In this document: positions 554 through 60,044 of the stretch, piece after piece | How the letters are laid out: the number at the start of each line of letters is the position of its first letter | How positions within the stretch are numbered: position 1 is the stretch's first letter | NCBI GenBank assembly: GCA_003216775.1 | Contig: QCII01000002.1 | Span: 62,001-126,000, forward strand | From: Prochlorococcus sp. AG-402-K21 | GTDB taxonomy: Bacteria > Cyanobacteriota > Cyanobacteriia > PCC-6307 > Cyanobiaceae | DNA length: 64,000 nucleotides | Direction: 5' to 3' | The notes under the pieces: generated by a model | The model's input: only the letters and a program-made list of their open reading frames with translations | Database searches by the model: none | What the model was told of the DNA's origin: nothing | Program-made: the position numbers and the translations under genes

Positions 554-1408
554 GTGAAACTTGAATTATCTAAAAAGGACCAAGGAATTTTTGTCTTTCA
601 GTTAGATAAAAATAATTACATTAAATTGTGTCCTGAAAGGGGAGGTCTCATAACAAATTGGGTGTCGGATGGTAATGAAATACTTTATTTCGATGAAAAA
701 AGATTTATGGACAAGACAAAAAGTATTAGGGGAGGCATTCCAATCTTGTTTCCAATTTGTGGAAATCTCAATACCTATAGTTCAGTATTTGGAAATAGTT
801 ATTTGCAATTACCACAACACGGTTTCGCTAGGGATTTGCAATGGCAATACTCCTTCAATGAAAATCAAAAATTTTTATGCTTATTCTTAAATGCATCTAA
901 ACAAACCAAAAAATATTATCCTTTCGATTTCGAACTAAAAATAGAAGTTACCTTAAAGATTAACTTTTTAGAATTTGAAATTACAATCCATAACAAAACA
1001 GATTTTGCTATGCCTATAAATTTTGGTCTGCATCCTTATTTTAATGTTTCAGATTTCAAAAATTTAGAGTTTGTTGATAATCCACTTAATTGTCAGGATC
1101 AAGAAAGAAATACTATAAGTAATACTTTGGTTGAATTAAACAAAATTAATTTAGGAGTTGATCTACTTATGTATACTTCCGGTAGAAGCTCTTTTCGAGA
1201 TAAGATTTTTAAAAGAGAGGTAACTTTAAATCATCCATATCCTTTTGATTTAGGTGTTATTTGGAGTGATCCTCCAAGAAGAATGATATGTCTCGAACCT
1301 TGGACTAGTCCCCGAAATTCTTTTATTGATGGATTTAGAAACATTATGATTCCTTCAAATGATAGTAAAAGGTTAAATGCCTCAATACAAATAAAATCTC
1401 TTAAGTAA
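554..1408 (+). CDS. Aldose 1-epimerase family / hexose-6-phosphate mutarotase-like protein
   Basis: A 284-aa protein with a GTG start 9 bp after the preceding stop. It has the galactose mutarotase superfamily signatures: IRGGIPILFP near residue 57 (typical of the YeaD-like hexose-6-phosphate branch), QHGFARDLQW around 93 with a likely catalytic His, GLHPYFNVS around 158 with the second His, and CLEPWTSPRNS around 246 with the presumed catalytic Glu. The family interconverts alpha and beta anomers of sugars or sugar phosphates in the cytosol. A specific substrate cannot be read from the sequence. It lies 13 bp upstream of a sugar-acid kinase family gene on the same strand, which suggests a small carbohydrate operon. 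Confidence 0.85.
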   Translation: MKLELSKKDQGIFVFQLDKNNYIKLCPERGGLITNWVSDGNEILYFDEKRFMDKTKSIRGGIPILFPICGNLNTYSSVFGNSYLQLPQHGFARDLQWQYSFNENQKFLCLFLNASKQTKKYYPFDFELKIEVTLKINFLEFEITIHNKTDFAMPINFGLHPYFNVSDFKNLEFVDNPLNCQDQERNTISNTLVELNKINLGVDLLMYTSGRSSFRDKIFKREVTLNHPYPFDLGVIWSDPPRRMICLEPWTSPRNSFIDGFRNIMIPSNDSKRLNASIQIKSLK

Positions 1409-1421
1409 TTTTGTAATACTT

Positions 1422-2771
1422 ATGAAATTTGTCGTTATAGATGATGATCCAACAGGCTCTCAAACTGTGCATGATTGTTTATTACTACTTAAGTGGGACT
1501 GTTCAACTTTAGTCAAAGGTTTTGAATCTAAATCTAATTTATTTTTTATTTTGGCTAATACAAGGTCACTATCGGAAAATGATACGAAATTAACAATAGA
1601 GGAAATTTGCAAAAATCTTAATACTGTAATTACTTCTCAAGCCTATGAAGAAGAAATTATTTTTATAAGTAGAGGAGACTCTACTCTACGAGGACATAAC
1701 TTTTTAGAGCCAATTGCTCTAAATAGTTGCTTAGGTCCTTTTGATGCTACTTTTCATATTCCAGCTTTCATAGAGGGTAAAAGATTAACAATTAATGGAT
1801 CTCATTTTGTTGATAAAACTCCTATTAGTCAAACAATTTTTGCAAAAGATAAAATTTTTGGATTTGAGACAAGTAATATCAAGAATCTTTTATTTAAGCA
1901 GAGTAAATCGCAAATAAATTTTGAAGATATTCAAAATCTTTTATTGTCGGATATTGAAATGCTAAATGAAGAAGAAAATAATATTGTTTTTAAAACACTA
2001 AAGAACTTGAAGAATAATAAACATGTAGTTGTAGATGTAGAAAATTATTCTCAACTAAAAAAATTTTCTTTAGTAATTAAAAAATTAATTAAACAAAAAA
2101 AATTCCTCTTTCGAACTGCAGCAAGTTTTATAAGTGCAATTTCTGAGAAAAAAAGCGTCCCTCAGGTTGAGACATTTTTCTCAAATTTAAGAATAAGAAA
2201 TAAAGAAAAGAGTTTTCTTCCGGGACTGATAATTGTTGGATCTTATGTAGAACTTTCAACAATACAATTGAATAATTTATTAGAGATAAGTAATTGCAAT
2301 CCAGTTGAATTAGATGTTTTTGAATTCTGTAAAATTACTTCATCAGATAATAATCAGAAGCGAAGGAATTTGTTTAAAAATAAATTTTTGAAAGAAATTA
2401 GATTTTCTTTTGAGAAAGGAAAAACACCTGTTTTGTTTACTTCAAGAAAATTTATGTCTATAGATCCTTCTGAACTATTTAATTTTTATAATTCACTTGC
2501 TTGTTTTATTGCTGAATTAGTCGCAGATTTGAAGGATGAAATAGGATATTTGATTTCAAAAGGTGGAATAACAACAAATTTGATTCTTAGTAAAGGACTT
2601 AATGCAGATTATGTTTATCTTGAAGGACAGATTTTAACTGGCATTTCAGTGGTGACTTACAATCTAAAAAATGGCGAAAAACTTCCCATTGTTACTCATC
2701 CTGGAAACATTGGCACTAAAGATTCACTGGTAAATATTTGGAAAGTTTTTGAAAATAAAAATAATTTTTAA
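1422..2771 (+). CDS. Four-carbon acid sugar kinase family protein (DUF1537/YgbK-like)
   Basis: A 449-aa protein starting at ATG. The N-terminal DDDPTGSQTVHD (residues 6-18) and SRGDSTLRGH (about 83-92) are the hallmark nucleotide/substrate motifs of the N-terminal domain. The C-terminal part has SKGGITTN (about 383) and LTGISVVT...THPGNIG (about 404-432), typical of the nucleotide-binding C domain. Characterised relatives phosphorylate four-carbon sugar acids such as threonate or erythronate (OtnK/DtnK, YgbK). The usual partner genes (OtnC/OtnI, PdxA2) are not adjacent, so the substrate here is open. The end is 3 bp from the end of icd, which faces it. Confidence 0.85.
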   Translation: MKFVVIDDDPTGSQTVHDCLLLLKWDCSTLVKGFESKSNLFFILANTRSLSENDTKLTIEEICKNLNTVITSQAYEEEIIFISRGDSTLRGHNFLEPIALNSCLGPFDATFHIPAFIEGKRLTINGSHFVDKTPISQTIFAKDKIFGFETSNIKNLLFKQSKSQINFEDIQNLLLSDIEMLNEEENNIVFKTLKNLKNNKHVVVDVENYSQLKKFSLVIKKLIKQKKFLFRTAASFISAISEKKSVPQVETFFSNLRIRNKEKSFLPGLIIVGSYVELSTIQLNNLLEISNCNPVELDVFEFCKITSSDNNQKRRNLFKNKFLKEIRFSFEKGKTPVLFTSRKFMSIDPSELFNFYNSLACFIAELVADLKDEIGYLISKGGITTNLILSKGLNADYVYLEGQILTGISVVTYNLKNGEKLPIVTHPGNIGTKDSLVNIWKVFENKNNF

Positions 2772-2773
2772 AA

Positions 2774-4198
2774 TTAGAAATTTGAGATAATTTCTTCAGC
2801 AAAACTGCTGCAGGATAAGGGTTCTACTTTTGGTTCCATTAAGCGTGCTAGATCATAGGTGACTTTTTTTTGCTCTATTGCCTTACTTAAACCATTAGTA
2901 ATTAAGGTAGCTGCCTCATCCCAACCAAAATATTCAAGCATCATTACACCACTAAGAATTACTGAGCCTGGATTAATCTTATTTAAGCCTGCATGTTTTG
3001 GAGCAGTACCGTGCGTAGCTTCGAAAATTGCTGCATTATCTCCAATATTTGCACCAGGAGCCATACCTAGGCCACCAACAATTGCTGCAGCTGCATCAGA
3101 GACATAGTCTCCATTGAGATTTAAGGTTGCAAGAATTGAATATTCTTGAGGTCTAGTTTGAATTTGTTGAAATATACTATCAGCTATTCGATCATCAACA
3201 AGAATACGTTCTTTCCATTTTCCATCTCCGTGAGAATTTGATATTGATGCAATAACTTCTTTAATTTCTTCGCAAATGAATGCTTTTTTGTTATTTGTAA
3301 GCTTGTCAAAACCTGGTTCAATTTTTCGAGCATTATTTTCAATTGTAATTTCTGGATTTTTCTGAATATTATCTAAAATCCAGCTTTCTCTTTCTGTAAT
3401 GCAATCTTCTCTAAATTCATTTACTGCTAATTCATATCCCCAATCTCTAAATGCACCTTCTGTATATTTCATTATATTCCCTTTATGTACAAGAGTCACA
3501 TGCCTTTTATCTCCTGATAATCTTTTGGCATGTTCAATAGCTTTTCTAATATGCCTTTGGCTACCAGATTTACTCACCGGTTTTATTCCAATACCTGATC
3601 CGTCGGGTATAGATCTATTTTTTAAATTTTTACTTTTTGGTATGACAACTTTATTTAGATGATTAATTAATTCAAGACAATTATTATCCTCCGCTTCCCA
3701 TTCAATTCCCATGTAGATATCCTCAGTATTTTCTCTATAAACAATAACGTCTAAATTTTGAGGATTTTTGTGAGGGCTTGGAGTTCCTGAATAATATTTG
3801 CATGGTCTAACACAGCTATATAAATCAAATATTTGCCTTAATGCAACATTAAGAGATCTGATACCTCCACCGATGGGAGTCGTTAAAGGACCTTTGATGG
3901 CTACACCAAAGTGTTTGATTGCTTCAATAGTATCTTGAGGGAGATAATTATATGTTCCATAAAGTTCACAAGCTTCATCGCCTGCATAGACTTTAAACCA
4001 ATTAATTTTTCTTTCATCTCCATAGCTTTTTTTAATCGCTGAATCAAGAACGATTTGAGTAGCTGGCCAAATATCAACTCCAGTACCATCACCTCTGATA
4101 AAAGGGACAATGGGATTATTTGGAACATTTGGTTTGCCTTGATTAAAAGTTATTATCTCACCTTCATTAGGTAAAGTTAATTTTTCAAATTTTGGCAT
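2774..4198 (-). CDS. icd: Isocitrate dehydrogenase (NADP-dependent)
   Basis: A 474-aa protein with an ATG start. It converts isocitrate to 2-oxoglutarate in the cytosol, providing the carbon skeleton for ammonium assimilation; 2-oxoglutarate is also the nitrogen-status signal in cyanobacteria. Visible motifs are FIRGDGTGVDIWP near the N terminus, the substrate loop GGGIRSLNVALRQ (about 110-122), VYRENTEDIY, the isocitrate/isopropylmalate dehydrogenase signature NLNGDYVSDAAAAIVGG (about 362-378) and ATHGTAPKHAG (about 394), typical of the NADP enzyme. The length is that of the longer cyanobacterial form. A 7-bp inverted repeat (AACTCAT/ATGAGTT, 4220-4259) lies in the leader. I saw no GTA-N8-TAC NtcA box there. 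Confidence 0.97.
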   Translation of the reverse strand: MPKFEKLTLPNEGEIITFNQGKPNVPNNPIVPFIRGDGTGVDIWPATQIVLDSAIKKSYGDERKINWFKVYAGDEACELYGTYNYLPQDTIEAIKHFGVAIKGPLTTPIGGGIRSLNVALRQIFDLYSCVRPCKYYSGTPSPHKNPQNLDVIVYRENTEDIYMGIEWEAEDNNCLELINHLNKVVIPKSKNLKNRSIPDGSGIGIKPVSKSGSQRHIRKAIEHAKRLSGDKRHVTLVHKGNIMKYTEGAFRDWGYELAVNEFREDCITERESWILDNIQKNPEITIENNARKIEPGFDKLTNNKKAFICEEIKEVIASISNSHGDGKWKERILVDDRIADSIFQQIQTRPQEYSILATLNLNGDYVSDAAAAIVGGLGMAPGANIGDNAAIFEATHGTAPKHAGLNKINPGSVILSGVMMLEYFGWDEAATLITNGLSKAIEQKKVTYDLARLMEPKVEPLSCSSFAEEIISNF

Positions 4199-4377
4199 AG
4201 CATTGAATTGATAAAAGATAACTCATTGAAGTTTTTCGTATTGTAATTTGCGATGAGTTAGTTTCTTTAAAAGCTAGAAATTTATTATTCAAATGTGAAT
4301 AGAGAATACTTTGTTGATCAGCATTTCAACATCTTTATTAAAAGAAAAAGTAGTTAATAAGCAAGTTAAATCAAATT

Positions 4378-4842
4378 ATGTCATTTTCAAAAAATAATAC
4401 TCGGCTATTTATGAATGCTAGTTCAAATGTAAGTAATGTTGAAATAGCTAATAAAATTGCTTCTACTGCTGCTTTGTTTCGGAAATATTTTCCCGACGCA
4501 AGTGTAAACTTCAGTCCCTGGGACAATTCAAACAATGAATCAATGCAAGATTCTATTGATTTTGCGTTTCATTTCCCTGGTTGGAGTCCTCTTATTGAAT
4601 GTAGAGCAATACTCTTACAATTAAGAATTGACAATGATAATAATGACAGAGTCCCAAAACTTTTAGGAATAATAATGCGAGGTATGATTGTTCCCTCCGA
4701 GAGATGGAGAGTGGCTACTATCGGTGATTGGGAAATGACTGGTACTCATCTACCGCAAAAGGAACAAAAAGATAATCTTTTTTTGGTTTGTAAAGAACTT
4801 TATAAGTTATTCTCTACAACATCCGCTGGTAACAAAAATTAG
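4378..4842 (+). CDS. Conserved cyanobacterial hypothetical protein
   Basis: A 154-aa protein starting at ATG, function not recognised. It is rich in Asn and Ser at the N terminus, followed by a more hydrophobic core (FAFHFPGWSPLIECRAILLQL, then LGIIMRGMIVPSERWRVATIGDWEMTG). No signal peptide, membrane segment or metal motif is visible. It sits 57 bp upstream of ho1 on the same strand, so it could be co-expressed with the bilin genes, but nothing in the protein links it to tetrapyrroles. It is probably a real gene: it is a long open frame in an AT-rich genome, with normal composition. Confidence 0.75.
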   Translation: MSFSKNNTRLFMNASSNVSNVEIANKIASTAALFRKYFPDASVNFSPWDNSNNESMQDSIDFAFHFPGWSPLIECRAILLQLRIDNDNNDRVPKLLGIIMRGMIVPSERWRVATIGDWEMTGTHLPQKEQKDNLFLVCKELYKLFSTTSAGNKN

Positions 4843-4899
4843 CTGTTTTATGTATTTTCCTTGTAGATTAAATACACTATCAAAAATAATTCAGAATAT

Positions 4900-5610
4900 A
4901 TGGCAATAGCTCTTGCAGGACAATTAAGAGAAGGGACAAAAAAATCCCACACTATGGCAGAAAATACTGGCTTTGTAGCTTGTTTTTTAAAAGGAGTTGT
5001 TGAAAAAAAATCTTATAGAAAATTAATTAGTGATTTATATTTTGTTTATGAAGCTATGGAACAAGAAATTGAAAGATTGGTCCATGAGGAACATCCAGTA
5101 ATAAAACCTATTGGTTTTAAATCATTATTTAGGAAAGAAACCCTTGAAAATGATCTTAAATTTTATTTTGGTGATAATTGGAAGAATGAAATTAATATTT
5201 CTCAATCAGCAAAAGAATACGTCGAAAGAATTCGTGAGGTAGCAAAAAATTCGCCAGAGTTATTGGTTGGTCATCACTATACACGTTATATAGGAGATTT
5301 ATCTGGGGGGCAAATATTGAAAAGGATCGCTAAAAAAGCATTAAATTTACAGGGAAATGATGGTTTAAATTTTTACGACTTTGAATTAATTGCTGACGAA
5401 AAGAAATTCAAAGAAGAATATTCCCTTACTTTGAATCAACTTCCAATAAATCAAAATACTGCTGATCAAATTATTGATGAAGCAAATCAAGCTTTTACTT
5501 ACAATATGAAAATGTTTAAAGAACTTGAAGGTAACTTGATTGCTGTTTTGGGCAAGATTGTATTTAATTACATTACAAAAAAAGTTAGGAAAGGAAGCAC
5601 TGAGACCTAG
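4900..5610 (+). CDS. ho1: Heme oxygenase
   Basis: A 236-aa protein of typical heme oxygenase length. It cleaves heme to biliverdin IX-alpha, CO and iron using ferredoxin. The N-terminal LREGTKKSHTMAENTGFV contains the proximal His ligand (about residue 17), and HHYTRYIGDLSGGQILKR (about 125-142) is the distal helix signature with the flexible glycines. It is followed after 6 bp by pebA and then directly by pebB, forming an operon that converts heme to phycoerythrobilin. The product fits with the few biliproteins retained by Prochlorococcus, which lacks phycobilisomes. Confidence 0.97.
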   Translation: MAIALAGQLREGTKKSHTMAENTGFVACFLKGVVEKKSYRKLISDLYFVYEAMEQEIERLVHEEHPVIKPIGFKSLFRKETLENDLKFYFGDNWKNEINISQSAKEYVERIREVAKNSPELLVGHHYTRYIGDLSGGQILKRIAKKALNLQGNDGLNFYDFELIADEKKFKEEYSLTLNQLPINQNTADQIIDEANQAFTYNMKMFKELEGNLIAVLGKIVFNYITKKVRKGSTET

Positions 5611-5616
5611 TCATTT

Positions 5617-6327
5617 ATGTTTGATTCATTAGTTGATTTCCTCAAAACCAATATAGATGAATTAAATGGTCATGAAGTGCAAATATCTAGTGAATTCAAA
5701 GAACATCATAATTCAGACGCAAAATGCATTATTAAAAATTGGCTTTTTTCATCGCCCGAATATAGAAAGTGGCGAATAACCAGATTAGATTGTGGTAAAA
5801 AACTGCAAGTGTTTAATACGGTCGCATATCCAAATTTTGATAGTGAATTGCCTATCTTAGGAGCTGATATTTTATGGTTTGGAAATTCTCAAAAGTTATT
5901 AGCAATACTTGATTATCAACCTTTAATTCAAGAAGGCAAGTATCTTGAAAAATATTGTTCAAGTTTAGGTAGTATTAAGAATAAATATTCTGAATTTGAT
6001 AATAATAAAATGAAAAATATCTATGATTCAAAAAAGTATTTTTCCCCATGGGTGATTATTTGTAGAGGAAATAAATTAAACCTTGATAGAGATTTAAATA
6101 ATATATTCCAATCATTTGTAAATAATTATTTGAATATTTATAAATTGAATCCTGTTAATCAATTTTTAAATGCAGATGAAATAAAGATTAATCAAATTAA
6201 ATATGATAAGTATAGTTTTGAAAAAGACCCTGCGGATAAATTGTTTAAATCTTTTTTTGGAGAAAAATGGACAAAAAAATTTATTAATAAATTTCTTTTT
6301 ACATTAAATAATGAGATTATTCATTGA
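5617..6327 (+). CDS. pebA: 15,16-dihydrobiliverdin:ferredoxin oxidoreductase
   Basis: A 236-aa ferredoxin-dependent bilin reductase. It reduces biliverdin IX-alpha at the C15=C16 bond to 15,16-dihydrobiliverdin. Family features are [12 protein letters not shown] (about 79-90), LAILDYQPL, a YFSPW motif (about 140) and the C-terminal [15 protein letters not shown], which is shared with other bilin reductases. The pebA rather than pcyA or pebB assignment rests on length, on the order ho1-pebA-pebB and on overall resemblance. It ends on the base before the pebB start codon, consistent with translational coupling and with known handover of the intermediate to PebB. Confidence 0.93.
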
Positions 6328-7089
6328 ATGTTAATACAAGATACTATTTTTTATAAACAAGATTGGAGATGGCATAATTTTCTAAAATATTTAACTAATA
6401 ATTTAAGTAAATATAACTGTTTAGAAAAAACAATACCCCCCGAATATTCTTATAAAGATTCAACTTATGGTTCAAAAAAATCAATAAAAAATGTGAGTCT
6501 TTCTACTTGGGGTGTAACGCATCAAAACAGAATTCAATTCGCAAGAGCAGTTTGTATTAATAGTCCAAATTATTCTGTTTTAAATTTTTTAATTATTCCT
6601 AATACTATTTATAACGTCCCATTTTTTGGAGTAGATTTTGTTTCTCTACCTAATAGTCATTTATTAGTATTAGATTTTCAGCCTTCATTAAAAATACAAA
6701 ATCAATACAGTAATGAGTTATTAGAAAAACTTATAAAACTCAAAACTCGTTGTCATTCATCACTCCCATTAGCTGAAAAAATGTCTGCAGATGTAGCTAG
6801 ATTTTTTTCTCCAGGACTAATCTGGTCAAAATTACCAAAAGAAGAAAGGAGTGATTTTTTAATTTCTAATTATCTTTATACCTCATTTAAGGAATATCTT
6901 AATTTGTATTTGGAAATTCTTTTCGAAAGCAAGGAAGTCAATATTGATTTGCAAAAAGAATTAATAAATGGTCAAAATAATTATTTAAAATATAGAAGAA
7001 ATAACGATCCAGCAAGGCCAATGTTATCGAGTTTGTTTGGCACAGAATTTACTGAATCTTTAATTGAAGAAGTTTTATTTACTACTTAA
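6328..7089 (+). CDS. pebB: Phycoerythrobilin:ferredoxin oxidoreductase
   Basis: A 253-aa protein starting immediately after the pebA stop. It takes 15,16-dihydrobiliverdin and reduces the A-ring diene to 3Z-phycoerythrobilin. Bilin reductase signatures are [24 protein letters not shown] (about 90-113), [10 protein letters not shown] (about 156) and [15 protein letters not shown] near the C terminus. It is the last gene of the ho1 operon; a separate TATAAT box precedes the next gene. In Prochlorococcus the operon persists although most phycoerythrin structural genes are lost, so the pigment probably serves a residual phycoerythrin or a signalling role (inference). Confidence 0.93.
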
Positions 7090-7095
7090 AAGTCT

Positions 7096-7101
7096 TATAA
7101 T
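7096..7101 (+). promoter_or_regulatory. Candidate -10 box for the phosphatase gene
   Basis: A perfect TATAAT lies 20 bp upstream of the ATG at 7122, just after the pebB stop. No convincing -35 element is evident. It suggests the phosphatase gene has its own transcript with a short leader. Confidence 0.4.
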
Positions 7102-7121
7102 TTATGTAAATTTGAAATCAT

Positions 7122-7595
7122 ATGAAAAAAATTTCTGTTCTTTTTGTATGTTTGGGAAATATTTGTAGGTCTCCTGCAGCAGAAGCTATCTTTAATAGTC
7201 TACTTGAAAAGAAAGGATTAACAGATTGCTTTATTGTAGATTCTGCTGGTACTGGGAGTTGGCATATTGGAAAAAAAGCCGACTCTAGGATGCGAATTGC
7301 GGCAGAAAGAAGAGATATAAATATCTTAAGCAGAGCTCGACAAATTACTAGCAAAGATTTTGATGAGTTTAACCATATTCTCGCGATGGACGACTCAAAT
7401 TTTAGAAATATTAAAGATCTTAAAAATAGAACAACTTCAACTGATCTTGCATCAATTAAAAAAATACAAGATTTTAGATCAGTTTTTAATGAGCAAGAAG
7501 TTCCTGACCCATATTTTGGAGGTGATGACGGCTTTGATTATGTCTTGGATATTTTAGAAGACTCTGTAAACGGTTTTTTGGAAAGTATTTCTTAA
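7122..7595 (+). CDS. Low-molecular-weight protein-tyrosine phosphatase family protein
   Basis: A 157-aa protein of standard family length. The active-site loop CLGNICRSPAAEA (from about residue 10) gives the C-X5-R-S signature, with Cys as nucleophile. VPDPYFGGDDGFDYVLDILED (about 127-147) supplies the general-acid Asp followed by the conserved aromatic residues. It is cytosolic and dephosphorylates phosphotyrosine in proteins or small phosphoesters. No tyrosine kinase or exopolysaccharide genes are adjacent, so a Wzb-type role is not supported by context. It converges on panC-cmk with a 2-bp gap. Confidence 0.93.
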   Translation: MKKISVLFVCLGNICRSPAAEAIFNSLLEKKGLTDCFIVDSAGTGSWHIGKKADSRMRIAAERRDINILSRARQITSKDFDEFNHILAMDDSNFRNIKDLKNRTTSTDLASIKKIQDFRSVFNEQEVPDPYFGGDDGFDYVLDILEDSVNGFLESIS

Positions 7596-7597
7596 AT

Positions 7598-9130
7598 CTA
7601 TTGGATCTGGGTCTCTTTAGGAATCTTGTCATCATAAAGATCAATAATTTTATCTACTACCTCATTAATTGAATATCCATCTGTAATAATTTCTATTGCG
7701 TCATTCGCTTTTATTAGAGGTGAAATTTCCCTATTGGAATCTTCAAAATCTCTTTTCTTTATAAGTTCCTTTAATGTATTAAGGTCTATTTCTTGTGAGT
7801 CTGTAGTATTTTTGTCAGATTGTCTTCTTTTTGCTCTTTCATCGATGCTAGCAGTTAAAAATATTTTAAGTTCTGCATGAGGAAAAACAGTAGTTCCTAT
7901 ATCTCTACCCTCGGCTACAAGTCCGCCTAATTCTCCAATTTTTCTTTGTTCTGCTACTAAGAATTTTCTTACTTCTTTTATTGAGGAAATTTTAGAAACG
8001 ATGGAACTTATCTCTTGTGATCTAATTTCTTGAGTAACACAGTAGTTATTAATAAAAACATCCTGATGTGAAATTGTATTTGACTTGAAAACAATAGATA
8101 TATCTTGAAGAATATTTTGCAATTTTTTTTCTTTTTTATAATCAATATTTTCTTTTATAAGAAGCCAACTCAATGCCCTATACATTGCTCCAGTATCTAA
8201 ATATAAAAGTTTAAGTTTCTTCGCTATTAACTTTGTGACAGTACTTTTACCTGACCCTGCAGGGCCATCAATTGCAATAATTGGCATTCTTTTCATTAGA
8301 AAAACGTGATCAATTAATCTTGTCTTTCCACATCTTATCGCACCAGCCAGTAACGAAATATTATCTTCAAGACTTGCTTTTTGGAGCGTATGAGGGTGTA
8401 AATGTTCTAAATATTCAATTGAAATTTTTTTTGTTGATAGCTTTTTAATTATTTCTTTTAAATTGATCTTTTTTTCTCGTTGAAAAATTTTTTTTGCTTG
8501 TAATAACTCACTTGAAAAAAATCTAATTAATTTTCTTTCATTTTTTGATAAATGTACATTACGTGAACTTAAAGGAATTCCATCAAAATCTCTTTGTGTA
8601 GGAATAGATTTAATAGCAACATTTAATTTCTTTGTTAGGACAAGATTTTTTAAAATTAAAAGTTGTTGCCAATCTTTTTCTCCTAAGTAAAGGTTTTTTG
8701 GCTTAATGAGATTAAGTAATCTATAAACTACTGTACAAACGCCATCAAAATGTCCAATTCGATTTAATCCACATAATGCAGAAGATAATTCTATTGGAGC
8801 TTTAAGGAATTTAATATTTTTATTATTTGGTGGATATATATCTTCTGTACTTGGAATAAAGATGGCATCTGCGCCATTTGCAAAGGAGATTTTTATATCA
8901 TCTTCAAGTGTTTGAGGGTAATTCTCTAAATCTAACTTACTATCAAATTGAAGTGGATTAATAAAAATACTTACTAAATTAACATTAGAATTGTCATTTT
9001 TTGCTGTTGATATTAGTTTAATATGTCCACTATGAAGGTTCCCCATTGTTGGAATGAGGTTAATTTCACTATCTGTATTTCTCCTCCAATTTTCTATTTC
9101 TTCAGTTTTCCTTATGATTACTTTCTTCAC
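7598..9130 (-). CDS. panC-cmk: Bifunctional pantothenate synthetase / cytidylate kinase
   Basis: A fusion of two complete enzymes, a known cyanobacterial arrangement. Counting from the chosen start, residues 1 to about 275 are PanC (beta-alanine + pantoate + ATP to pantothenate), with PTMGNLHSGH near residue 25 as the HIGH-type nucleotide motif. Residues from about 280 to the end are CMP kinase, with the Walker A motif IAIDGPAGSGKST followed by LDTGAMYRALSW and EGRDIGTTVFPHA. The frame is open to a TTG at 9181. I chose the GTG at 9130 because the PanC family normally begins right at KKVIIRKTEEIE, giving 510 aa. The adenylation and CMP kinase activities are biochemically unrelated, so the fusion probably reflects co-expression. 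Confidence 0.95.
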   Translation of the reverse strand: MKKVIIRKTEEIENWRRNTDSEINLIPTMGNLHSGHIKLISTAKNDNSNVNLVSIFINPLQFDSKLDLENYPQTLEDDIKISFANGADAIFIPSTEDIYPPNNKNIKFLKAPIELSSALCGLNRIGHFDGVCTVVYRLLNLIKPKNLYLGEKDWQQLLILKNLVLTKKLNVAIKSIPTQRDFDGIPLSSRNVHLSKNERKLIRFFSSELLQAKKIFQREKKINLKEIIKKLSTKKISIEYLEHLHPHTLQKASLEDNISLLAGAIRCGKTRLIDHVFLMKRMPIIAIDGPAGSGKSTVTKLIAKKLKLLYLDTGAMYRALSWLLIKENIDYKKEKKLQNILQDISIVFKSNTISHQDVFINNYCVTQEIRSQEISSIVSKISSIKEVRKFLVAEQRKIGELGGLVAEGRDIGTTVFPHAELKIFLTASIDERAKRRQSDKNTTDSQEIDLNTLKELIKKRDFEDSNREISPLIKANDAIEIITDGYSINEVVDKIIDLYDDKIPKETQIQ

Positions 9131-9227
9131 TTTGTTTTTAAAAATAAATCTATTTGATAAATAATTACTGGACAAAAGCAATCTTAGGAGGAATATCTAT
9201 ATAGGGAAAGTCTATCATTTTTATTTC

Positions 9228-10271
9228 ATGGATTACAAAACATCAGGTGTTGATATAGAAGCCGGGCGAGAATTTGTTTCCGAAATTAAACAGGCAGTTG
9301 AAGGAACTCATACATCTAATGTGATAGAGGGTATTGGTGGCTTCGGAGGTTTGTTTAGAGTTCCTATCGATGGTTTTAAAAAACCAGTTCTTGTTTCAGG
9401 AACTGATGGTGTTGGAACAAAATTAGAATTAGCTCAAAGTAAAAACTTTCACTTTGAGGTTGGTATCGATTTAGTTGCTATGTGCATAAATGATATTATT
9501 ACTAGCGGAGGAAAACCTTTATTTTTTCTAGATTATATTGCTACTGGTAAGCTTGATAAGAAACAATTATTGAGGGTTGTTCAGGGTATTTCACATGGCT
9601 GCAGAGAAAATAACTGTTCATTACTGGGGGGAGAAACTGCTGAAATGCCAGGATTTTATTCAAAAAATAAGTATGATCTCGCGGGGTTTTGTGTTGGAAT
9701 AGTTGATGAAGATAAGATTATTAATGGTAAAAAAGTATCTGAAAATGACTTAATAATTGCTTTAAAAAGTAATGGAGTTCATAGTAACGGCTTTAGTTTA
9801 GTAAGAAAAATAATTCATAACAATAATCAAATAGATAAAGAATTTGAAAAAGTTTCTCAATTAAATTTTTATGATGAGTTATTGAAACCTACGAAAATCT
9901 ACAATAATGTGATTAACCAGATGTTATCTGAAAATATAGAAATCAAAGCAATGTCTCATATTACTGGTGGAGGAATTCCAGAGAATTTACCAAGATGTAT
10001 GCCTTCTGATTTTATTCCCTATATCAATACCAGTTCTTGGGAAATTCCTATTTTATTTAAATTCCTAAAAGAGAAAGGATCGATTCCTGAAAAAGATTTT
10101 TGGAATACTTTCAATCTTGGAGTAGGATTTTGTTTAATTATTGATAAACAATTTAAGGAAGCCATATTTAATATTTGTAAAGATCATGACATAGATAGTT
10201 GGGAGATTGGAAAGATAGTTCGAAAAAATGATTCAACAATTAGTAAATTTTTACCAGAAATCTTGACTTAA
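9228..10271 (+). CDS. purM: Phosphoribosylformylglycinamidine cyclo-ligase (AIR synthetase)
   Basis: A 347-aa protein of typical PurM length with an ATG start. It catalyses the ATP-dependent closure of FGAM to aminoimidazole ribonucleotide in purine synthesis. Visible motifs are DGVGTKLELA (about 64), IGGFGG at the N terminus, DLVAMCINDIITSGGKPLFFLDYIATGKLD (the ATP/metal region, about 81-110), GGETAEMPGFY (about 138-148), LKSNGVHSNGFSLVR and MSHITGGGIPENLPR (about 242-256). It is divergent from panC-cmk with a short shared upstream region. Confidence 0.97.
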   Translation: MDYKTSGVDIEAGREFVSEIKQAVEGTHTSNVIEGIGGFGGLFRVPIDGFKKPVLVSGTDGVGTKLELAQSKNFHFEVGIDLVAMCINDIITSGGKPLFFLDYIATGKLDKKQLLRVVQGISHGCRENNCSLLGGETAEMPGFYSKNKYDLAGFCVGIVDEDKIINGKKVSENDLIIALKSNGVHSNGFSLVRKIIHNNNQIDKEFEKVSQLNFYDELLKPTKIYNNVINQMLSENIEIKAMSHITGGGIPENLPRCMPSDFIPYINTSSWEIPILFKFLKEKGSIPEKDFWNTFNLGVGFCLIIDKQFKEAIFNICKDHDIDSWEIGKIVRKNDSTISKFLPEILT

Positions 10272-10341
10272 AATTTTTTCATCTTTTTTAAATGAGTTTT
10301 AAAAAATAATTTTTATACCCAAATCAAAAAGTTAGATGTAA

Positions 10342-10347
10342 TATAAT
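10342..10347 (+). promoter_or_regulatory. Candidate -10 box
   Basis: A TATAAT hexamer lies in the 133-bp gap after purM, 57 bp before the ATG at 10405. It suggests an independent promoter for the unknown gene that follows. No clear -35 sequence is seen. Confidence 0.35.
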
Positions 10348-10404
10348 GAAATTACCGCCGAATTATATCGGAAGTTTAAGTATTAAGATTTAACCTTTTA
10401 TTCA

Positions 10405-11049
10405 ATGCCTTTTGCAAATAATCAAAGAATTACTCGTAGACGTAGTTCAGCCGGCCCTATACCTCCAAAAAGACCAGCAGGTAATAATTCTGAGTTTAAT
10501 GGTAGACAGGCTCAAGGCCCTAGACCAACGTTTCTGACACTAAGAGATCATGGAAAAGTTTTTGTTGCTGATTTACCTAATTTGTCCGATGGTCAATTAG
10601 CTCATATTAGTAAAGAAGCTAATGAAGTTTTGAATAGTTTGGAAAAACGGCTTAGTGATCTTGAAAATGAGCCTAATATTAGTAATCCTGAAAACGATAC
10701 GCTGATAAAAGCTTCTACCAAAAGAGATGTCACATTGAGGTTTATTAAATCCATAGAAGAAGAACAAGAACATAGAAAGAATAATCCTGCTTTGAGAGAT
10801 GCTGCTTCTGAATCTTTACCGAGAACTTTTCTTGAAGTTGCTAGACATAGATTGCCTGGAGCAACTTTTGATTCACTACTTCGGGAGGCTCTAGAAGCAT
10901 GTGCAGTTGATGAGAGTACTGAAGAAAATCAAATTATGGACGCACCCAAAGAAACTGTAAAAATTATGGATATACCCTCTTCCAACACAAACGCTTCACT
11001 TGTTGTTAGTATCGATTCAAGTGATGATTCTAAGAATGGCTCTATTTGA
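10405..11049 (+). CDS. Conserved picocyanobacterial hypothetical protein
   Basis: A 214-aa protein, function not recognised. The N terminus (1-50) is basic, Pro/Gly/Arg-rich and probably disordered. Residues 55-140 look helical and highly charged (LSDGQLAHISKEANEVLNSLEKRLSDLENE and FIKSIEEEQEHRKNN), with coiled-coil potential. A further helical segment, TFLEVARHRLPGATFDSLLREALEACA, follows, then an acidic Ser-rich tail. There is no membrane segment or enzyme motif. The basic-then-acidic layout could suit a nucleic-acid or scaffold role, but that is speculation. The next small gene overlaps its 3' end by 14 bp. Confidence 0.7.
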   Translation: MPFANNQRITRRRSSAGPIPPKRPAGNNSEFNGRQAQGPRPTFLTLRDHGKVFVADLPNLSDGQLAHISKEANEVLNSLEKRLSDLENEPNISNPENDTLIKASTKRDVTLRFIKSIEEEQEHRKNNPALRDAASESLPRTFLEVARHRLPGATFDSLLREALEACAVDESTEENQIMDAPKETVKIMDIPSSNTNASLVVSIDSSDDSKNGSI

Positions 11050-11203
11050 TTCAAAACAAGAGTTATTAAGTGCAAAAGTTCAAAATAATTTAGAAATTAA
11101 TCTTTCTTCAAAAAAAGATATTATTCTATGTAATTATTGCAAAAGAACAGCATCAAATGGTGTGAGATGTTTAGGAATGTGTGTGGCAGATAATGATTAC
11201 TAA
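11036..11203 (+). CDS. Small zinc-ribbon-like conserved protein
   Basis: A 55-aa protein read from the ATG at 11036, overlapping the upstream gene's end by 14 bp in another frame. A longer in-frame opening exists at 11000, but the sequence before 11036 (MLLVSIQVMILR) is just an echo of the overlapping gene. The C-terminal half has CNYCKRTASNGVRCLGMCVADNDY, a C-X2-C-X9-C-X3-C pattern that suggests a small structural zinc or redox site. Function unknown. The overlap suggests translational coupling with the 214-aa gene. Confidence 0.65.
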   Translation: MALFDSKQELLSAKVQNNLEINLSSKKDIILCNYCKRTASNGVRCLGMCVADNDY

Positions 11204-11424
11204 AACTGTTAATAATTCTCTGTAATGTTATTTATCAATAAATACATAAGATAATATTTATCAAAAATGAATAAAAATTTTTTTATATAAATAAGTAATA
11301 GGAAATAATAAACCCATTATTGATAAGTTGTTTTCAAAATTATGGTTAGAGATCCTTCCTGAGTAAAAAAATGCTGGTAGGTGAATTCATGGGATAATAT
11401 TACAAAAGGGAAAAAGGTCAATTC
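11204..11424. other. Intergenic region left of the tRNA-Cys element
   Basis: About 220 very AT-rich bases with no credible ORF and no recognisable RNA gene. The only structure I see is the long inverted repeat that begins at 11376, listed separately. Confidence 0.5.
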
Positions 11425-11431
11425 ACCTACC
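11376..11431. repeat. Inverted repeat with perfect 12-bp arms
   Basis: GGTAGGTGAATT (11376-11387) and its exact reverse complement AATTCACCTACC (11420-11431) flank a 32-bp spacer. The arms contain the CACCTACC core that recurs in the flanking direct repeats, so this may be a recombinase or regulator binding pair, or a hairpin-forming structure at the outer edge of the element. Confidence 0.6.
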
Positions 11432-11556
11432 ACTCACCTACTGCTAAAAACGCTTTAAAATTTAAGAACAGATATTCAAAACTCAAGGTGGTGGATGGGA
11501 TTACAGCGAATCATGTAAACCTAATAATGAAGGCGGCAGCCAGATTCGAATTGGGG
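11425..11556. repeat. Left direct repeat with degenerate 3' end of tRNA-Cys (candidate att site)
   Basis: These 132 bp align without gaps to 12580-12711 at a constant offset of 1155 bp, with scattered mismatches. The last 26 bp (11531-11556) copy the 3' acceptor and T-arm of tRNA-Cys on the minus strand: AGGCGGCAGCCAGATTCGAA against AGGCGGCACCCAGATTCGAA. Duplication of a tRNA 3' end at a distance is the footprint of tRNA-targeted integration. The mismatches within the tRNA part suggest an old event. Confidence 0.75.
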
Positions 11557-11724
11557 TATGAATACTCAGAAATTCAACTATAACTCCTGTTTCAGCGATA
11601 TAAATTAACAACTTACCGCCCACTTACCGCCTATAAGAGATATTTTTAAGTGTAATTTTTGATCTTAATTAACTTATACCGCAGGATTTTCGGGCGGTAA
11701 ATGATATTAACTTGCACCTTTAAA

Positions 11725-11753
11725 TTGTTCCCCTAATGAATAGGTGAGATAAT
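11725..11753 (+). promoter_or_regulatory. Candidate sigma-70 promoter of the element's small operon
   Basis: TTGTTC (11725-11730), a 17-bp spacer and GATAAT (11748-11753). The expected start near 11760 gives a leader of about 48 bases before the ATG at 11808. The inverse motif GGGCGGTAA ends 24 bp upstream of the -35 element, a position suited to a regulator. Confidence 0.45.
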
Positions 11754-11788
11754 CTTGAATAAGGAATACAAAAGATTGAAGAAAATAC

Positions 11789-11796
11789 AGGAGGAG
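11789..11796 (+). promoter_or_regulatory. Strong Shine-Dalgarno sequence of the 80-aa ORF
   Basis: AGGAGGAG precedes the ATG at 11808 with a rather long spacer of 11-13 bases. Most non-ribosomal genes in this window have no recognisable Shine-Dalgarno sequence, so this supports the small ORF being translated. Confidence 0.5.
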
Positions 11797-11807
11797 CAAC
11801 AACAACA

Positions 11808-12050
11808 ATGACAAAAGATTTTGACGATACAAATTGGAAGCAAGAATTATTAGGGAGTTTGGAGTTTAACCAATCCAAGTTTGCTAGTAAGTTACTCAAA
11901 AATGGAGCAAAATCATTTATGCAGAGTATCTATCTTGGTTATCTCTACACCAGATGGAAAAAATTGAAAGGATATGACAAGTTTGATCCAAAAAAAAATA
12001 ATGGGCAGATGCAATCATCATTAAAAGATTTCTTTAAAAAAACCAAATGA
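11808..12050 (+). CDS. Small hypothetical protein inside the tRNA-Cys element
   Basis: An 80-aa protein with an ATG start, a good purine-rich ribosome-binding sequence and a promoter-like sequence upstream. Function not recognised. It is basic in the second half (YTRWKKLKGYDKFDPKKNNG...FFKKTK). The central FASKLLKNGAKSFMQSIYLGYLYTRWKKLKGY could form an amphipathic helix. No signal peptide or metal site is visible. Its stop overlaps the start of the next ORF as ATGA, indicating translational coupling. Being inside the repeats, it is probably cargo of the element. Confidence 0.6.
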   Translation: MTKDFDDTNWKQELLGSLEFNQSKFASKLLKNGAKSFMQSIYLGYLYTRWKKLKGYDKFDPKKNNGQMQSSLKDFFKKTK

Positions 12051-12196
12051 AGATTATTGCAAAAGTTAGGTATGTAGATTTTCAAAAACGATCCCACACA
12101 GTTGAAGTGCAAATTGCTATGCGTTATAAAAGAATTGAGAACTTAAGTGATCATCTACAAAGCAAATTTACAAATAAGAATGTCATTGATAAATAA
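12047..12196 (+). CDS. 49-aa hypothetical protein, coupled to the preceding ORF
   Basis: It reads MKIIAKVRYVDFQKRSHTVE and continues to VIDK. Its ATG overlaps the previous stop codon by 4 bp (ATGA), and its last 17 bp overlap the next ORF in another frame. It is basic, with a likely beta start followed by a helix. There is no recognised family, and the small size keeps the call tentative; the tight overlap on both sides is the main evidence that it is a gene. Confidence 0.45.
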   Translation: MKIIAKVRYVDFQKRSHTVEVQIAMRYKRIENLSDHLQSKFTNKNVIDK

Positions 12197-12503
12197 ATTC
12201 TCGATTAAAGATTTCATACTCTCAATTAAAGAGGCATATCAAAAGGAACTCAATAACAAAGGTGTGGGTTCAGATATAGGAAAGTCATTATTTAATAAAT
12301 TCTCGATTAAAGATTTCATACTCTCAAGCAAAGAGGCATATCAAAAGGAACTCAATAACAAAGGTGTGGGTTCAGATATAGGAAAGTCATTATTTAATAA
12401 ATTCTCGATTAAAGATTTCATACTCTCAAGCAAAGAGGCATATCAAAAGGAACTCAATAACAAAGGTGTGGGTTCAGATATAGGAAAATCATTATTTAAT
12501 TAA
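12180..12503 (+). CDS. Tandem-repeat protein with three 34-residue units
   Basis: A 107-aa protein read from the ATG at 12180; a longer opening at 12147 is less likely because it overlaps more of the preceding ORF. After MSLI the protein is three near-identical 34-residue units built on NKFSIKDFILS(S/I)KEAYQ, KELNNKGVGSDIGKS and a short LF linker. The first unit differs mainly in having I for S at one position, and there are almost no synonymous differences between units, so the amplification is recent. Each unit suggests one amphipathic helix followed by a Gly-rich turn. Function unknown. A fourth, degraded unit follows the stop. Confidence 0.55.
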   Translation: MSLINKFSIKDFILSIKEAYQKELNNKGVGSDIGKSLFNKFSIKDFILSSKEAYQKELNNKGVGSDIGKSLFNKFSIKDFILSSKEAYQKELNNKGVGSDIGKSLFN

Positions 12504-12551
12504 TTCTCGATTCAAGATATCATACTCTCAGGCAAAGAGGCATATCAAAGT
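12198..12551. repeat. 102-bp tandem repeat array, three full copies and a partial fourth
   Basis: Copies begin with TTCTCGATT at 12198, 12300, 12402 and 12504, an exact period of 102 bp (34 codons). Copies 1-3 are nearly identical and stay in frame. Copy 4 is cut off from the reading frame by a TAA at 12501-12503, has diverged (TTCAAGATATCATAC), and loses similarity near 12551. Confidence 0.9.
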
Positions 12552-12579
12552 ATCAAAAAACCTGATTATTTATTAGGTA

Positions 12580-12711
12580 ACTTAACGCCCACCTACCGCT
12601 AAAAACGCTTTGAAATTTAAGAACAGATATTCAAAACTCAAGCTTTTGGAAGGGGTTACAGCGAATCTTGTAACCCGAATAATGAAGGCGGCACCCAGAT
12701 TCGAACTGGGG
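12580..12711. repeat. Right direct repeat, overlapping tRNA-Cys (candidate att site)
   Basis: Partner of 11425-11556. It begins with an ACTTAACGCC-CACCTACCGC block at 12580-12599, runs through about 85 bp of conserved sequence of unknown role and ends inside the T-arm of the intact tRNA-Cys. In an integration model this is the junction at the functional tRNA end. Confidence 0.75.
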
Positions 12712-12756
12712 ATAAAGGATTTGCAATCCTCTGCCTTACCACTTGGCCATGCCGCC
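12686..12756 (-). tRNA. tRNA-Cys(GCA)
   Basis: A 71-nt cloverleaf on the minus strand. The acceptor GGCGGCA pairs with TGCCGCC, the discriminator base is U as expected for bacterial tRNA-Cys, the anticodon loop TTGCAAA gives GCA, and the T-loop is TTCGAAT. It lies antisense to the open frame that continues upstream from the LpxB-like gene, so that extension is not coding. Its 3' end is duplicated at 11531-11556. Confidence 0.97.
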
Positions 12757-59869: not shown

Positions 59870-59930
59870 ACATTTCGATTAAATAAATATTTTTGAATGT
59901 TTGCAAAAAAATTGATAATCTATAAGAACT

Positions 59931-60019
59931 GGAGAGGTGGCTGAGTGGTTGAAAGCGGCTCCCTGCTAAGGAGTTACAGGAGGTAACTTTTGTCGAGGGT
60001 TCGAATCCCTCCCTCTCCG
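59931..60019 (+). tRNA. tRNA-Ser(GCT)
   Basis: An 89-nt class II tRNA. The acceptor GGAGAGG pairs with CCTCTCC, the anticodon stem-loop GCTCC-CTGCTAA-GGAGT gives GCT, there is a long variable arm (TACAGGAGGTAACTTTTGTC) and the T arm is GAGGGTTCGAATCCCTC. CCA is not encoded. Confidence 0.97.
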
Positions 60020-60044
60020 TAATTAATTAAAAAAATTTTTCAAT

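What the first reader, a model, noticed from the sequence alone, without database searches (positions are those of the whole stretch)
11425..12756. A 1.15-kb mini-element flanked by duplicated tRNA-Cys 3' ends, with no recombinase
Two 132-bp direct repeats at an exact 1155-bp offset both end in the 3' part of tRNA-Cys. The sequence shows this directly. tRNA 3' end duplication is the established mark of site-specific integration by tyrosine recombinases, and Prochlorococcus islands at tRNA genes are known. What is unusual is the size: only three tiny ORFs lie between the repeats. It may be a minimal satellite mobilised in trans, or the decayed core of a larger island.
Basis: partly seen in the sequence, partly recalled or inferred. 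Interest (0 to 1): 0.8.

Follow-up and report, generated by a model that had tools for sequence, protein, structure and literature searches.

The report
Recombinase-less mini-element in tRNA-Cys array
A 1.15-kb piece of DNA beside a tRNA gene in Prochlorococcus looks like a shrunken copy of a known tRNA-targeting mobile element that has lost its integrase gene but kept the integrase's landing sites, and it sits in the remains of a row of such elements.

Summary
The repeats are real, but the reading needs changing. The locus is a tRNA-Cys integration site. Relatives show the empty site, other small inserts without a recognisable integrase, and 7-10 kb elements (Prochlorococcus AG-436-O11, AG-347-M18, AG-915-K06) that encode a 459-462 aa tyrosine-recombinase-like integrase. 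An integrase family of this description is already reported at tRNA-Phe and tRNA-Cys (PMC10187409), with its mechanism 'not yet known'. The window element (11531-12685) keeps the parent's left end as far as the first codons of int and part of its right end. It lacks the integrase, the GIY-YIG gene and the serine resolvase, and carries a conserved 80-aa cargo gene. Two other genomes carry it with the same deletion junction, and two more carry shortened forms. Their array contexts differ and element histories disagree with those of core genes, so it spread after the deletion. The true att duplication is only about 20-26 bp. The rest of each 132-bp repeat is another element type's arm; the right copy is a chimera, so the locus is a collapsed array. 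The closest working analogy is a CIME or MITE. No such integrase was found in the host genome, and mobility was not observed. Verdict: a new non-autonomous variant of a known element.

The parts
11206..11290 (.). Remnant of the native tRNA-Cys 3' flank (right edge approximate)
   Evidence: Resembles the native interval of empty-site relatives, judged by eye in the alignment; BLAST pieces of 71-106 bp.
11375..11530 (.).
   Evidence: 88-91% identical to arms next to tRNA-Cys in L052, L053, L056; same arm type as cassette X of G137.
11531..11556 (-). Left att copy: 26 nt of the tRNA-Cys 3' end; crossover lies in the first ~20 nt
   Evidence: 24/26 match to the tRNA; in 11 occupied relatives the matching copy is preceded by native tRNA flank; BLAST.
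11531..12685 (+). The mini-element, 1155 bp from core to core
   Evidence: Same element, 1149 bp, in G199 (L169) with native flank on the left.
11611..11631 (+). Left arm-type sites: two tandem 11-bp copies ACTTACCGCCC
   Evidence: TRF; same place in the parent L166 at 5079/5090; motif absent from all 36 native sites.
11693..11703 (-). Inverted copy of the arm-type motif, left end
   Evidence: GGGCGGT in 6 of 7 aligned left ends, GGGAGGT in G137.
11755..11811 (+). 18-codon stub of the int gene (TTG start, TGA overlapping the next ATG)
   Evidence: Aligned with the int start of L166; translated. Deletion junction near 11780.
11808..12050 (+). ORF 80 aa (o80), cargo gene; relatives in cyanophages; function unknown
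   Evidence: phrog_16908 E 6.7e-20; 35 phage records; dN/dS 0.10 against G199; predicted all-helical, mean pLDDT 65.8.
12047..12196 (+). ORF 49 aa (o49): first ~22 codons of a 52-aa gene that follows the resolvase in L166, fused to the repeat region
   Evidence: tblastn 95% over 22 aa to L166; second junction near 12115-12123.
12147..12503 (+). ORF 118 aa of 34-aa repeats (102-bp tandem repeat 12174-12549)
   Evidence: units differ between loci by whole-codon indels, pN/pS 0.52 in frame (0.65 and 1.27 in the other two frames).
12521..12589 (.). Mini-element's own right end, up to the arm repeats
   Evidence: 94% over 69 bp to the right end of the G137 mini-element; only 7-9 bp matches to the other arm type.
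12580..12600 (+). Right arm-type sites (ACTTAACGCCC ACCTACCGC): crossover point of the chimera
   Evidence: exact tandem copies at the matching place in L166 at 12020/12031.
12590..12685 (.).
   Evidence: 90-94% to G137 X, the window left copy, the G137 left copy, L053, L056; only 20 nt align with the G137 mini-element's own arm.
12686..12756 (-). tRNA-Cys(gca), intact: the target gene
   Evidence: ARAGORN.

Best explanation
This is a non-autonomous miniature of the picocyanobacterial tRNA-Cys integrase element. SHOWN by comparison: the integrase-bearing element lies at the 3' end of tRNA-Cys, with its boundaries in a ~20-bp core (AGGCGGCACCCAGATTCGAA on the window + strand); the tRNA stays complete and a truncated 26-nt copy lies at the far end next to int. 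The miniature keeps the parent's left end (core, paired 11-bp arm repeats, inverted copy, int start) and its right end as far as the arm repeats, and lacks int, the GIY-YIG gene and the resolvase. The same deletion junction occurs in two other genomes. In the window it lies next to the arm of an older element (11375-11530), and its right end is a chimera of two arm types. INFERRED: a neighbouring cassette between mini-element and tRNA was lost by a crossover between arm repeats; an integrase from a full element arriving in the same cell moves the miniature in trans, or in cis by accretion, with the arm repeats as binding sites; the int promoter may now drive o80.
For: Native empty sites with conserved flank in 36 of 70 compared loci (L184, counted there, is dropped because its contig ends before the tRNA). 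Insert boundaries at the tRNA core with native flank outside. An integrase-bearing parent at the same site with the same arm repeats, and two more parents. Three colinear homology blocks between window and parent. Same deletion junction in window, G199 and G137. o80 synonymous differences window-G199 18 of 41 sites against 6.9 expected from seven core genes (p 5e-5); window-G137 4 of 41 against 10.5 expected (p 0.01) (counts rounded). Whole-element identities 85.5% over 1150 bp and 91.9% over 961 bp for the same pairs, while the left flanks rank the pairs the other way (91.7%, 88.6%). Chimeric right end. All 26 integrase ORFs examined carry a tRNA-Cys or tRNA-Phe 26-mer copy upstream: 15 Cys with at most 3 mismatches, 10 Phe with at most 2, one Phe with 5. 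R285, R393 and Y431 conserved in 26 of 26, K314 in 25 of 26.
Against: No integrase of this family was found in the window's own genome or in the other four carriers G199, G163, G137, G077 (G077 is 66% complete), so each sampled copy is orphaned. No circle, excision product or read evidence could be examined. The integrase matches no integrase model of Pfam or PHROGs and no solved chain; profile comparison with other recombinases was not significant, its predicted structure was poor (mean pLDDT 53) and the usual box II histidine is replaced, so its class rests on the other catalytic residues and on PMC10187409. The window left core differs from the tRNA at two positions and the right arm is chimeric, so this copy may no longer be a good substrate. 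The window-G137 test is not significant against the least divergent core gene alone (p 0.23). Only 9 of 28 non-native sites carry the arm motif within one mismatch, so it marks one element type, not every insert.
Confidence: 0.8

Rival explanations
1. Inert relic moved only by homologous recombination: the deletion happened once in place, and patchy presence reflects exchange of alleles (filled or empty) through the conserved flanks, with no site-specific step after the deletion.
For: No integrase found in any of the five carrier genomes. The arm-arm crossover in the window could be ordinary recombination between repeats. The local host tree is star-like. G199-G077 flanks are 89.2% identical on the left and 95.6% on the right, a sign of recombination near the locus.
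Against: The left flank does not follow the element: it ranks window-G199 above window-G137, the element the reverse. G163-G077 elements are 92.1% identical with flanks at 89.4% and 90.4%; G199-G077 elements are 89.8% although their right flanks are 95.6%. Tracts would have to begin and end close to the element ends. G199 has native flank outside the core, the window has another element's arm there.
Confidence: 0.25
2. Miniature phage satellite: the o80 gene, related to T4-like cyanophage proteins, lets the element ride in cyanophage particles.
For: o80 relatives in 35 phage records, all named as cyanophage or marine virus, and in 2 viral contigs. o80 under purifying selection. A tycheposon-like element (L048) carries an o80 relative right after its resolvase.
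Against: No viral contig holds an exact copy of the arm pair or of the left att junction; none was found to encode a relative of the integrase or of the 34-aa repeat protein. No packaging or replication gene was recognised in the element.
Confidence: 0.1
3. Derivative of a tycheposon in the strict sense, not of the tRNA-Phe/tRNA-Cys integrase element.
For: The o80-o49 pair is shared with a tycheposon-like element at tRNA-Ser (L048), and related interiors occur in minis at tRNA-Ser and tRNA-Asn.
Against: Both ends and the int start align with the tRNA-Cys integrase element. The arm motif was not found at the fetched tRNA-Ser and tRNA-Asn loci. PMC10187409 places its integrase apart from tycheposon integrases.
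Confidence: 0.05
4. Vertically inherited tRNA pseudogene beside an unrelated intergenic region.
For: The left tRNA copy is degenerate at two positions.
Against: 36 of 70 sites carry native DNA in place of the interval; integrase elements occupy the same junctions.
Confidence: 0.01

Closest known systems
Picocyanobacterial integrase element at tRNA-Phe or tRNA-Cys (PMC10187409; passages read)
   Same: Same target tRNA and an integrase of matching description (tyrosine type, serine recombinase nearby, variable cargo). Ends and int start of the window element align with such an element.
   Different: The window element has no integrase or resolvase and is 1.15 kb. The passages read do not describe att cores, arm repeats, arrays or miniatures. 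The published integrase sequence was not compared directly.
CIME, cis-mobilizable element (definition in PMC5704250, passages read)
   Same: Lost its integration genes, retains attL and attR, lies in tandem with remains of other elements at a tRNA 3' end.
   Different: CIMEs derive from conjugative or mobilizable elements; I recognised no conjugation gene in the parents' ORF lists, without a dedicated search. The same mini junction recurs in other genomes, so it is not merely a local relic.
MITE (as described in PMC11389934, passages read)
   Same: Short deletion derivative kept by end sequences that an absent enzyme would recognise.
   Different: Tyrosine-recombinase-type ends at one tRNA site, not terminal inverted repeats for a transposase; carries a conserved protein gene.
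CALIN / integron cassette array (as described in PMC11389934, passages read)
   Same: Tandem small units with different cargo, without integrase, at one site; exchangeable ends.
   Different: The unit boundary is a tRNA 3' fragment plus arms; attC sites and an integron integrase were not searched for.
Tycheposon (cited as 4-200 kb in PMC10872708, passages read; original paper not held)
   Same: tRNA-targeted Prochlorococcus element with a tyrosine recombinase in the full form.
   Different: Another integrase family (PMC10187409), the arm motif not found at tRNA-Ser/Asn loci, and far below the cited size.

Membership tests
tRNA-Cys integrase element (PMC10187409) | Encodes the novel tyrosine integrase | tested here: not met
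   No such ORF in 11531-12685; only an 18-codon stub of its start. No family member found in the genome.
tRNA-Cys integrase element (PMC10187409) | Located at tRNA-Cys (or tRNA-Phe) | tested here: met
   tRNA-Cys 12686-12756 with truncated copy at 11531.
tRNA-Cys integrase element (PMC10187409) | Same ends as integrase-bearing elements at that site | tested here: met
   Left end 80.6% over 294 bp to L166; right end 69% over 124 bp, its distal part being of another arm type.
tRNA-Cys integrase element (PMC10187409) | Small serine recombinase nearby (frequent, not universal) | tested here: not met
   None in the window element. L166 has one by Pfam; L180 and L181 have resolvase-like ORFs by my reading.
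CIME | Retains attL and attR | tested here: met
   Cores at 11531 and 12686 with arms.
CIME | Lost integration and transfer genes of a conjugative or mobilizable ancestor | tested here: inconclusive
   Integration genes lost; no transfer gene recognised by eye in the parents' ORF lists, no dedicated search made.
CIME | Mobilised by accretion of an active element | not testable with these tools
   A tandem with an integrase element is seen (L184) but no transfer can be assayed.
Tycheposon | Tycheposon-type tyrosine recombinase | tested here: not met
   None in the element; a query from one tycheposon-like element (L048) finds none in the genome.
Tycheposon | Size of 4 kb or more (as cited in PMC10872708) | tested here: not met
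   1155 bp.
Integron cassette / CALIN | attC sites | not tested
   No attC search was run; the unit ends are explained by tRNA cores and arms.

The most novel reading that the evidence does not exclude
tRNA-Cys in Prochlorococcus works as an integron-like platform: tandem, recombinase-less cassettes of about 1-2 kb, each with one or two cargo genes, a tRNA 3' core and exchangeable arms, are added, lost and reshuffled by an integrase that only now and then passes through the cell. The window would be one state of such an array, with one cassette removed by arm-to-arm recombination. Distinct cargoes seen at this one site (named from my reading of the translations) include a polysaccharide export protein, TPR proteins, an acetyltransferase, a methyltransferase, a Nudix hydrolase and a GIY-YIG protein.
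Probability: 0.3. Interest if true: 0.8.

Novelty: new variant of a known kind. Interest (0 to 1): 0.56.

Why it matters
[quoted passage not shown] The comparisons here give a concrete answer to test: a ~20-bp core in the tRNA-Cys 3' end, paired 11-bp arm repeats on both sides in one element type, clean empty sites, and a 1.15-kb natural candidate substrate lacking the integrase. They also suggest a route by which single genes can be swapped at one fixed site in a streamlined, very abundant ocean bacterium. Finally, they warn that tRNA-fragment repeats in islands can come from array collapse rather than one insertion.

Tried and rejected
Structure prediction of the integrase gave a poor model (mean pLDDT 53), so no fold search was run. 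Searches for the integrase in Pfam, PHROGs and solved structures gave no integrase match (three weak, unrelated Pfam hits, one each in single members), and profile comparison with two other recombinase sets was not significant. PF00589 was first used to look for recombinases; the L166 integrase scores nothing against it, so the single PF00589 hit in the own genome (392-aa protein beside hemH) was not taken as proof that no other integrase exists, and direct family searches were made. The idea of a tycheposon miniature, suggested by L048, was dropped when the ends matched L166 and PMC10187409 separated the integrases. A phage-satellite reading found no viral contig with the arms, junction, integrase or repeat protein, though two encode o80 relatives. 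Reading the 132-bp repeat as one att duplication was dropped. A possible shared junction in G163 (L167) is not claimed: only about 12-13 bases beyond the int stub agree. o80 was folded but not searched: four helices of moderate confidence.

Counting and bias: one search printed 71 sites; L184 is dropped here because its contig ends before the tRNA, leaving 70 (36 native, 34 not). Twelve of the 70 were chosen because of interior matches, arm motif or integrase (window, L034, L036, L037, L038, L040, L166-L169, L180, L181). The other 58 come from 60 loci (L052-L111) picked from the match list by rank and contig length, which favours sites with window-like arms; L054 and L107 had no left flank. 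The two G137 contigs were also left out. L110, L111 and L168 belong to a divergent clade whose native flank may differ from the reference used, so 22 non-native of 58 is an upper bound. The native cut-off (75% identity) was mine; no site lay between 64% and 82%. For one search the 26 ORFs are those of about full length with a fetched locus (one truncated, L185); partial matches were left out, and no shuffled control was run.
Full report
WHAT IS THERE. The two direct repeats are as described: 11425-11556 and 12580-12711, 132 nt, 88% identical, offset 1155. An intact tRNA-Cys(gca) lies at 12686-12756 on the minus strand; the last 26 nt of each repeat are its 3' end. Of the four tRNA genes in the window only tRNA-Cys has an off-site copy reaching its 3' end. 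The interval holds ORFs of 80 (o80), 49 (o49) and 118 aa (o118) and a 102-bp tandem repeat of 3.7 copies. No recombinase was recognised in it.

THE SITE IN RELATIVES. The window is G000:C2:62001-126000 of a 1.64-Mb genome; matches in 146 of 151 genomes of the genus and named relatives place it in Prochlorococcus. Between a conserved left flank (to 11205) and tRNA-Cys, 70 sites can be compared (which printed 71; L184 is dropped because its contig ends before the tRNA). In 36 the DNA next to tRNA-Cys is native and the interval is 105-214 bp. In 34 it is not native and the interval runs from 197 bp to 10.6 kb. Of 60 loci picked by rank and contig length, 58 had both flanks and 36 of these are native; the other 12 were chosen for interior matches, arm motif or integrase. 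Occupied sites carry different small cargoes (names are my reading of the translations, not database hits): a polysaccharide-export-like protein in L059, L064, L076 and L088, TPR proteins in L037 and L077, an acetyltransferase-like protein in L060, a methyltransferase-like protein in L095, a Nudix-like protein in L065, a GIY-YIG-like protein in L038. Two carry larger surface-glycan islands in which I saw no integrase (L053, L109).

THE ATT CORE. In 11 occupied loci (L038, L055, L057, L062, L064, L075, L076, L096, L169, L180, L181) the left tRNA copy is preceded by what reads as native tRNA flank. The copies agree with the tRNA over the first 20 nt, apart from scattered changes, and most differ at positions 21-23 and beyond. 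The crossover therefore lies in or next to AGGCGGCACCCAGATTCGAA, the 3' end of tRNA-Cys. This is comparative evidence of site-specific integration.

ARM REPEATS. A tandem 11-bp repeat, ACTTACCGCCC, lies about 55 bp inside the left core (11611-11631), with an inverted copy at 11693, and a degenerate pair at 12580-12600. The window has 11 matches to CACTTACCGCC with up to 2 mismatches against 3.2 expected; 0 of 100 shuffles reached 11. With one mismatch allowed, the 10-base motif ACTTACCGCC occurs in 9 of the 28 non-native sites and in 0 of the 36 native ones, so it marks one element type, not all inserts. A genus-wide search for the tandem pair found 14 places in 10 of 266 genomes; the reversed-pattern control read 0 in the rows shown. 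All 14 lie at the tRNA-Cys locus (positions compared). By position they look like arm-type binding sites; that function is inferred.

THE PARENT. G191, named Prochlorococcus sp. AG-436-O11 (QCPO01000001.1), has a 7.1-kb element at the same tRNA-Cys. It has a 26-nt tRNA copy at L166:4999-5024, exact arm pairs at both ends, a 462-aa integrase starting at 5225, a GIY-YIG protein and a serine resolvase. G211 (AG-347-M18) and G253 (AG-915-K06) have elements of about 9.5 kb at the same site with integrases 52% and 47-48% identical. In the genus 8 of 266 genomes have the family; in the wider family 39 of 400. The 26 ORFs examined (about full length; one truncated) all have a tRNA-Cys or tRNA-Phe 26-mer copy upstream: 15 Cys with at most 3 mismatches, 10 Phe with at most 2, one Phe with 5 (no shuffled control). 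The short loci around the 19 of them taken contain no complete tRNA, so there the copy is a truncated one. R285, R393 and Y431 are conserved in 26 of 26 and K314 in 25 of 26, while the usual box II histidine is replaced (residue roles recalled and as given in PMC10187409). Library searches do not recognise the protein. PMC10187409 (passages read) describes an integrase family in Prochlorococcus and Synechococcus at tRNA-Phe or tRNA-Cys, often near a small serine recombinase, distinct from tycheposon integrases, with the mechanism not yet known. The family here fits that description, but the published sequence was not compared.

THE MINI-ELEMENT IS A DELETION DERIVATIVE. Three blocks of the window align in order with the parent: the left 294 bp (80.6%), 79 bp at the o49 start (87%) and 124 bp at the right end (69%). 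The left block runs through the int start: window 11755 TTG AAT AAG ..., then a junction near 11780, after which the leader of o80 begins. The int stub ends in TGA overlapping the ATG of o80. G199 (L169) and G137 show the same junction. G163 (L167) has a variant in which o80 was not found, and G077 (L034) a left-truncated copy.

IT MOVED AFTER THE DELETION. In a tree of the left flank (72 loci, no formal test) the five carriers are scattered among empty and otherwise filled sites; the tree is star-like. Seven core genes put the window closer to G199 (dS 0.19) than to G137 (0.315); o80 says the opposite (0.69 and 0.09), as does the whole element (85.5% over 1150 bp and 91.9% over 961 bp). Against the pooled core rate the p values are 5e-5 and 0.01; against the single most (or least) divergent core gene they are 0.008 and 0.23. 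The left flank follows the core genes (91.7% and 88.6%); the right flank barely separates the pairs (90.3% and 89.9%); and G199-G077 flanks disagree with each other (89.2% left, 95.6% right). So recombination around the locus is likely. Either site-specific movement or short allelic exchange must have occurred; breakpoints close to the element ends favour the first but do not prove it.

A COLLAPSED ARRAY. Left of the window's left core lies not native flank but a second right arm (11375-11530). G137 shows a fuller state on two contigs: from the tRNA outward, an arm, a cassette X with a TPR-like gene, a core, the mini-element's own arm and part of the mini-element; on the other contig the rest of the mini-element, a core and the foreign arm type. 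In the window the right end is a chimera: 12521-12589 is 94% identical to the G137 mini-element's own end, whereas 12590-12685 is 90-94% identical to the foreign arm type. The simplest account is loss of a cassette like X by crossover between arm repeats. The 132-bp repeat is thus 26 bp of core plus about 106 bp of the foreign arm, twice.

CARGO. o80 is a conserved protein gene: dN/dS 0.10 for window-G199 and G199-G137 and 0.09 for L047-L048, though 0.54 for the close pair window-G137 with only 13 changes. It matches phrog_16908, of unknown function, and 35 phage records, all named as cyanophage or marine virus, at under 60% identity (several are two records of one phage), and 2 viral contigs. 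o118 repeats vary by whole codons between loci and show pN/pS 0.52 in frame against 0.65 and 1.27 in the other frames, weaker evidence of coding. Related interiors occur in other mini-elements at tRNA-Ser and tRNA-Asn with other ends, so the module has moved between element types.

HOW IT MOST LIKELY WORKS. Inferred: a full element entering the cell supplies the integrase, which binds the arm repeats and recombines the core with tRNA-Cys, moving the miniature in trans or, by accretion, in cis. No such integrase was found in the host; its one PF00589 protein and one resolvase are not known to act here. CIMEs are the closest working analogy (definition in PMC5704250, passages read). That recombinase-less miniatures of this element are undescribed rests only on the passages of PMC10187409 and on the searches; the original tycheposon paper did not appear in them, and a later journal version of PMC10187409, which I recall exists, was not seen.

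Noticed in passing
L046 (G131) 7302-7953; L039 (G107) 8049-8817; L035 (G042) 6954-8153: Mini-elements with the same o49/34-aa-repeat interior lie at tRNA-Ser(gct) and tRNA-Asn between copies (15-17 nt) of those tRNA 3' ends, with other arm sequences and no recombinase seen.
   Followed up: partly
L044 7611-7940, L045 7597-7962, L049 7122-7385, L051 7655-8053: ORFs of 34-aa repeats like o118 also stand alone with no tRNA found in the fetched stretch; in G060, G128, G120, G090 and G063 they lie about 146-164 kb from the tRNA-Cys site on the same contig. Function unknown.
   Followed up: partly
L053 (G071) and L109 (G145), tRNA-Cys interval: 10.6- and 6.6-kb surface-glycan islands at tRNA-Cys share 4.2 kb at 82%; arms beside the tRNA are 83% alike over 125 bp. 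I saw no integrase among their ORFs of 70 aa or more.
   Followed up: partly
L059, L064, L076, L088: A 416-417-aa polysaccharide-export-like gene (my reading) is the only large ORF in four relatives' tRNA-Cys inserts.
   Followed up: no
L048 (G050) 1272-12045: A large element at tRNA-Ser(gct) carries an AlpA-like gene (my reading), a 430-aa tyrosine-recombinase-like protein, a serine resolvase and an o80 relative right after the resolvase.
   Followed up: partly
G000:C3:76600-77022 (L112 1417-2595): A 392-aa phage-integrase-family protein beside hemH; proteins of about 389-398 aa with similarly weak PF00589 scores appear in most of the 24 genomes searched, so it looks like a core gene of unknown role.
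   Followed up: no
window 59930-60020: tRNA-Ser(gct), a target of related elements in other genomes, has no copy reaching its 3' end elsewhere in this window.
   Followed up: yes
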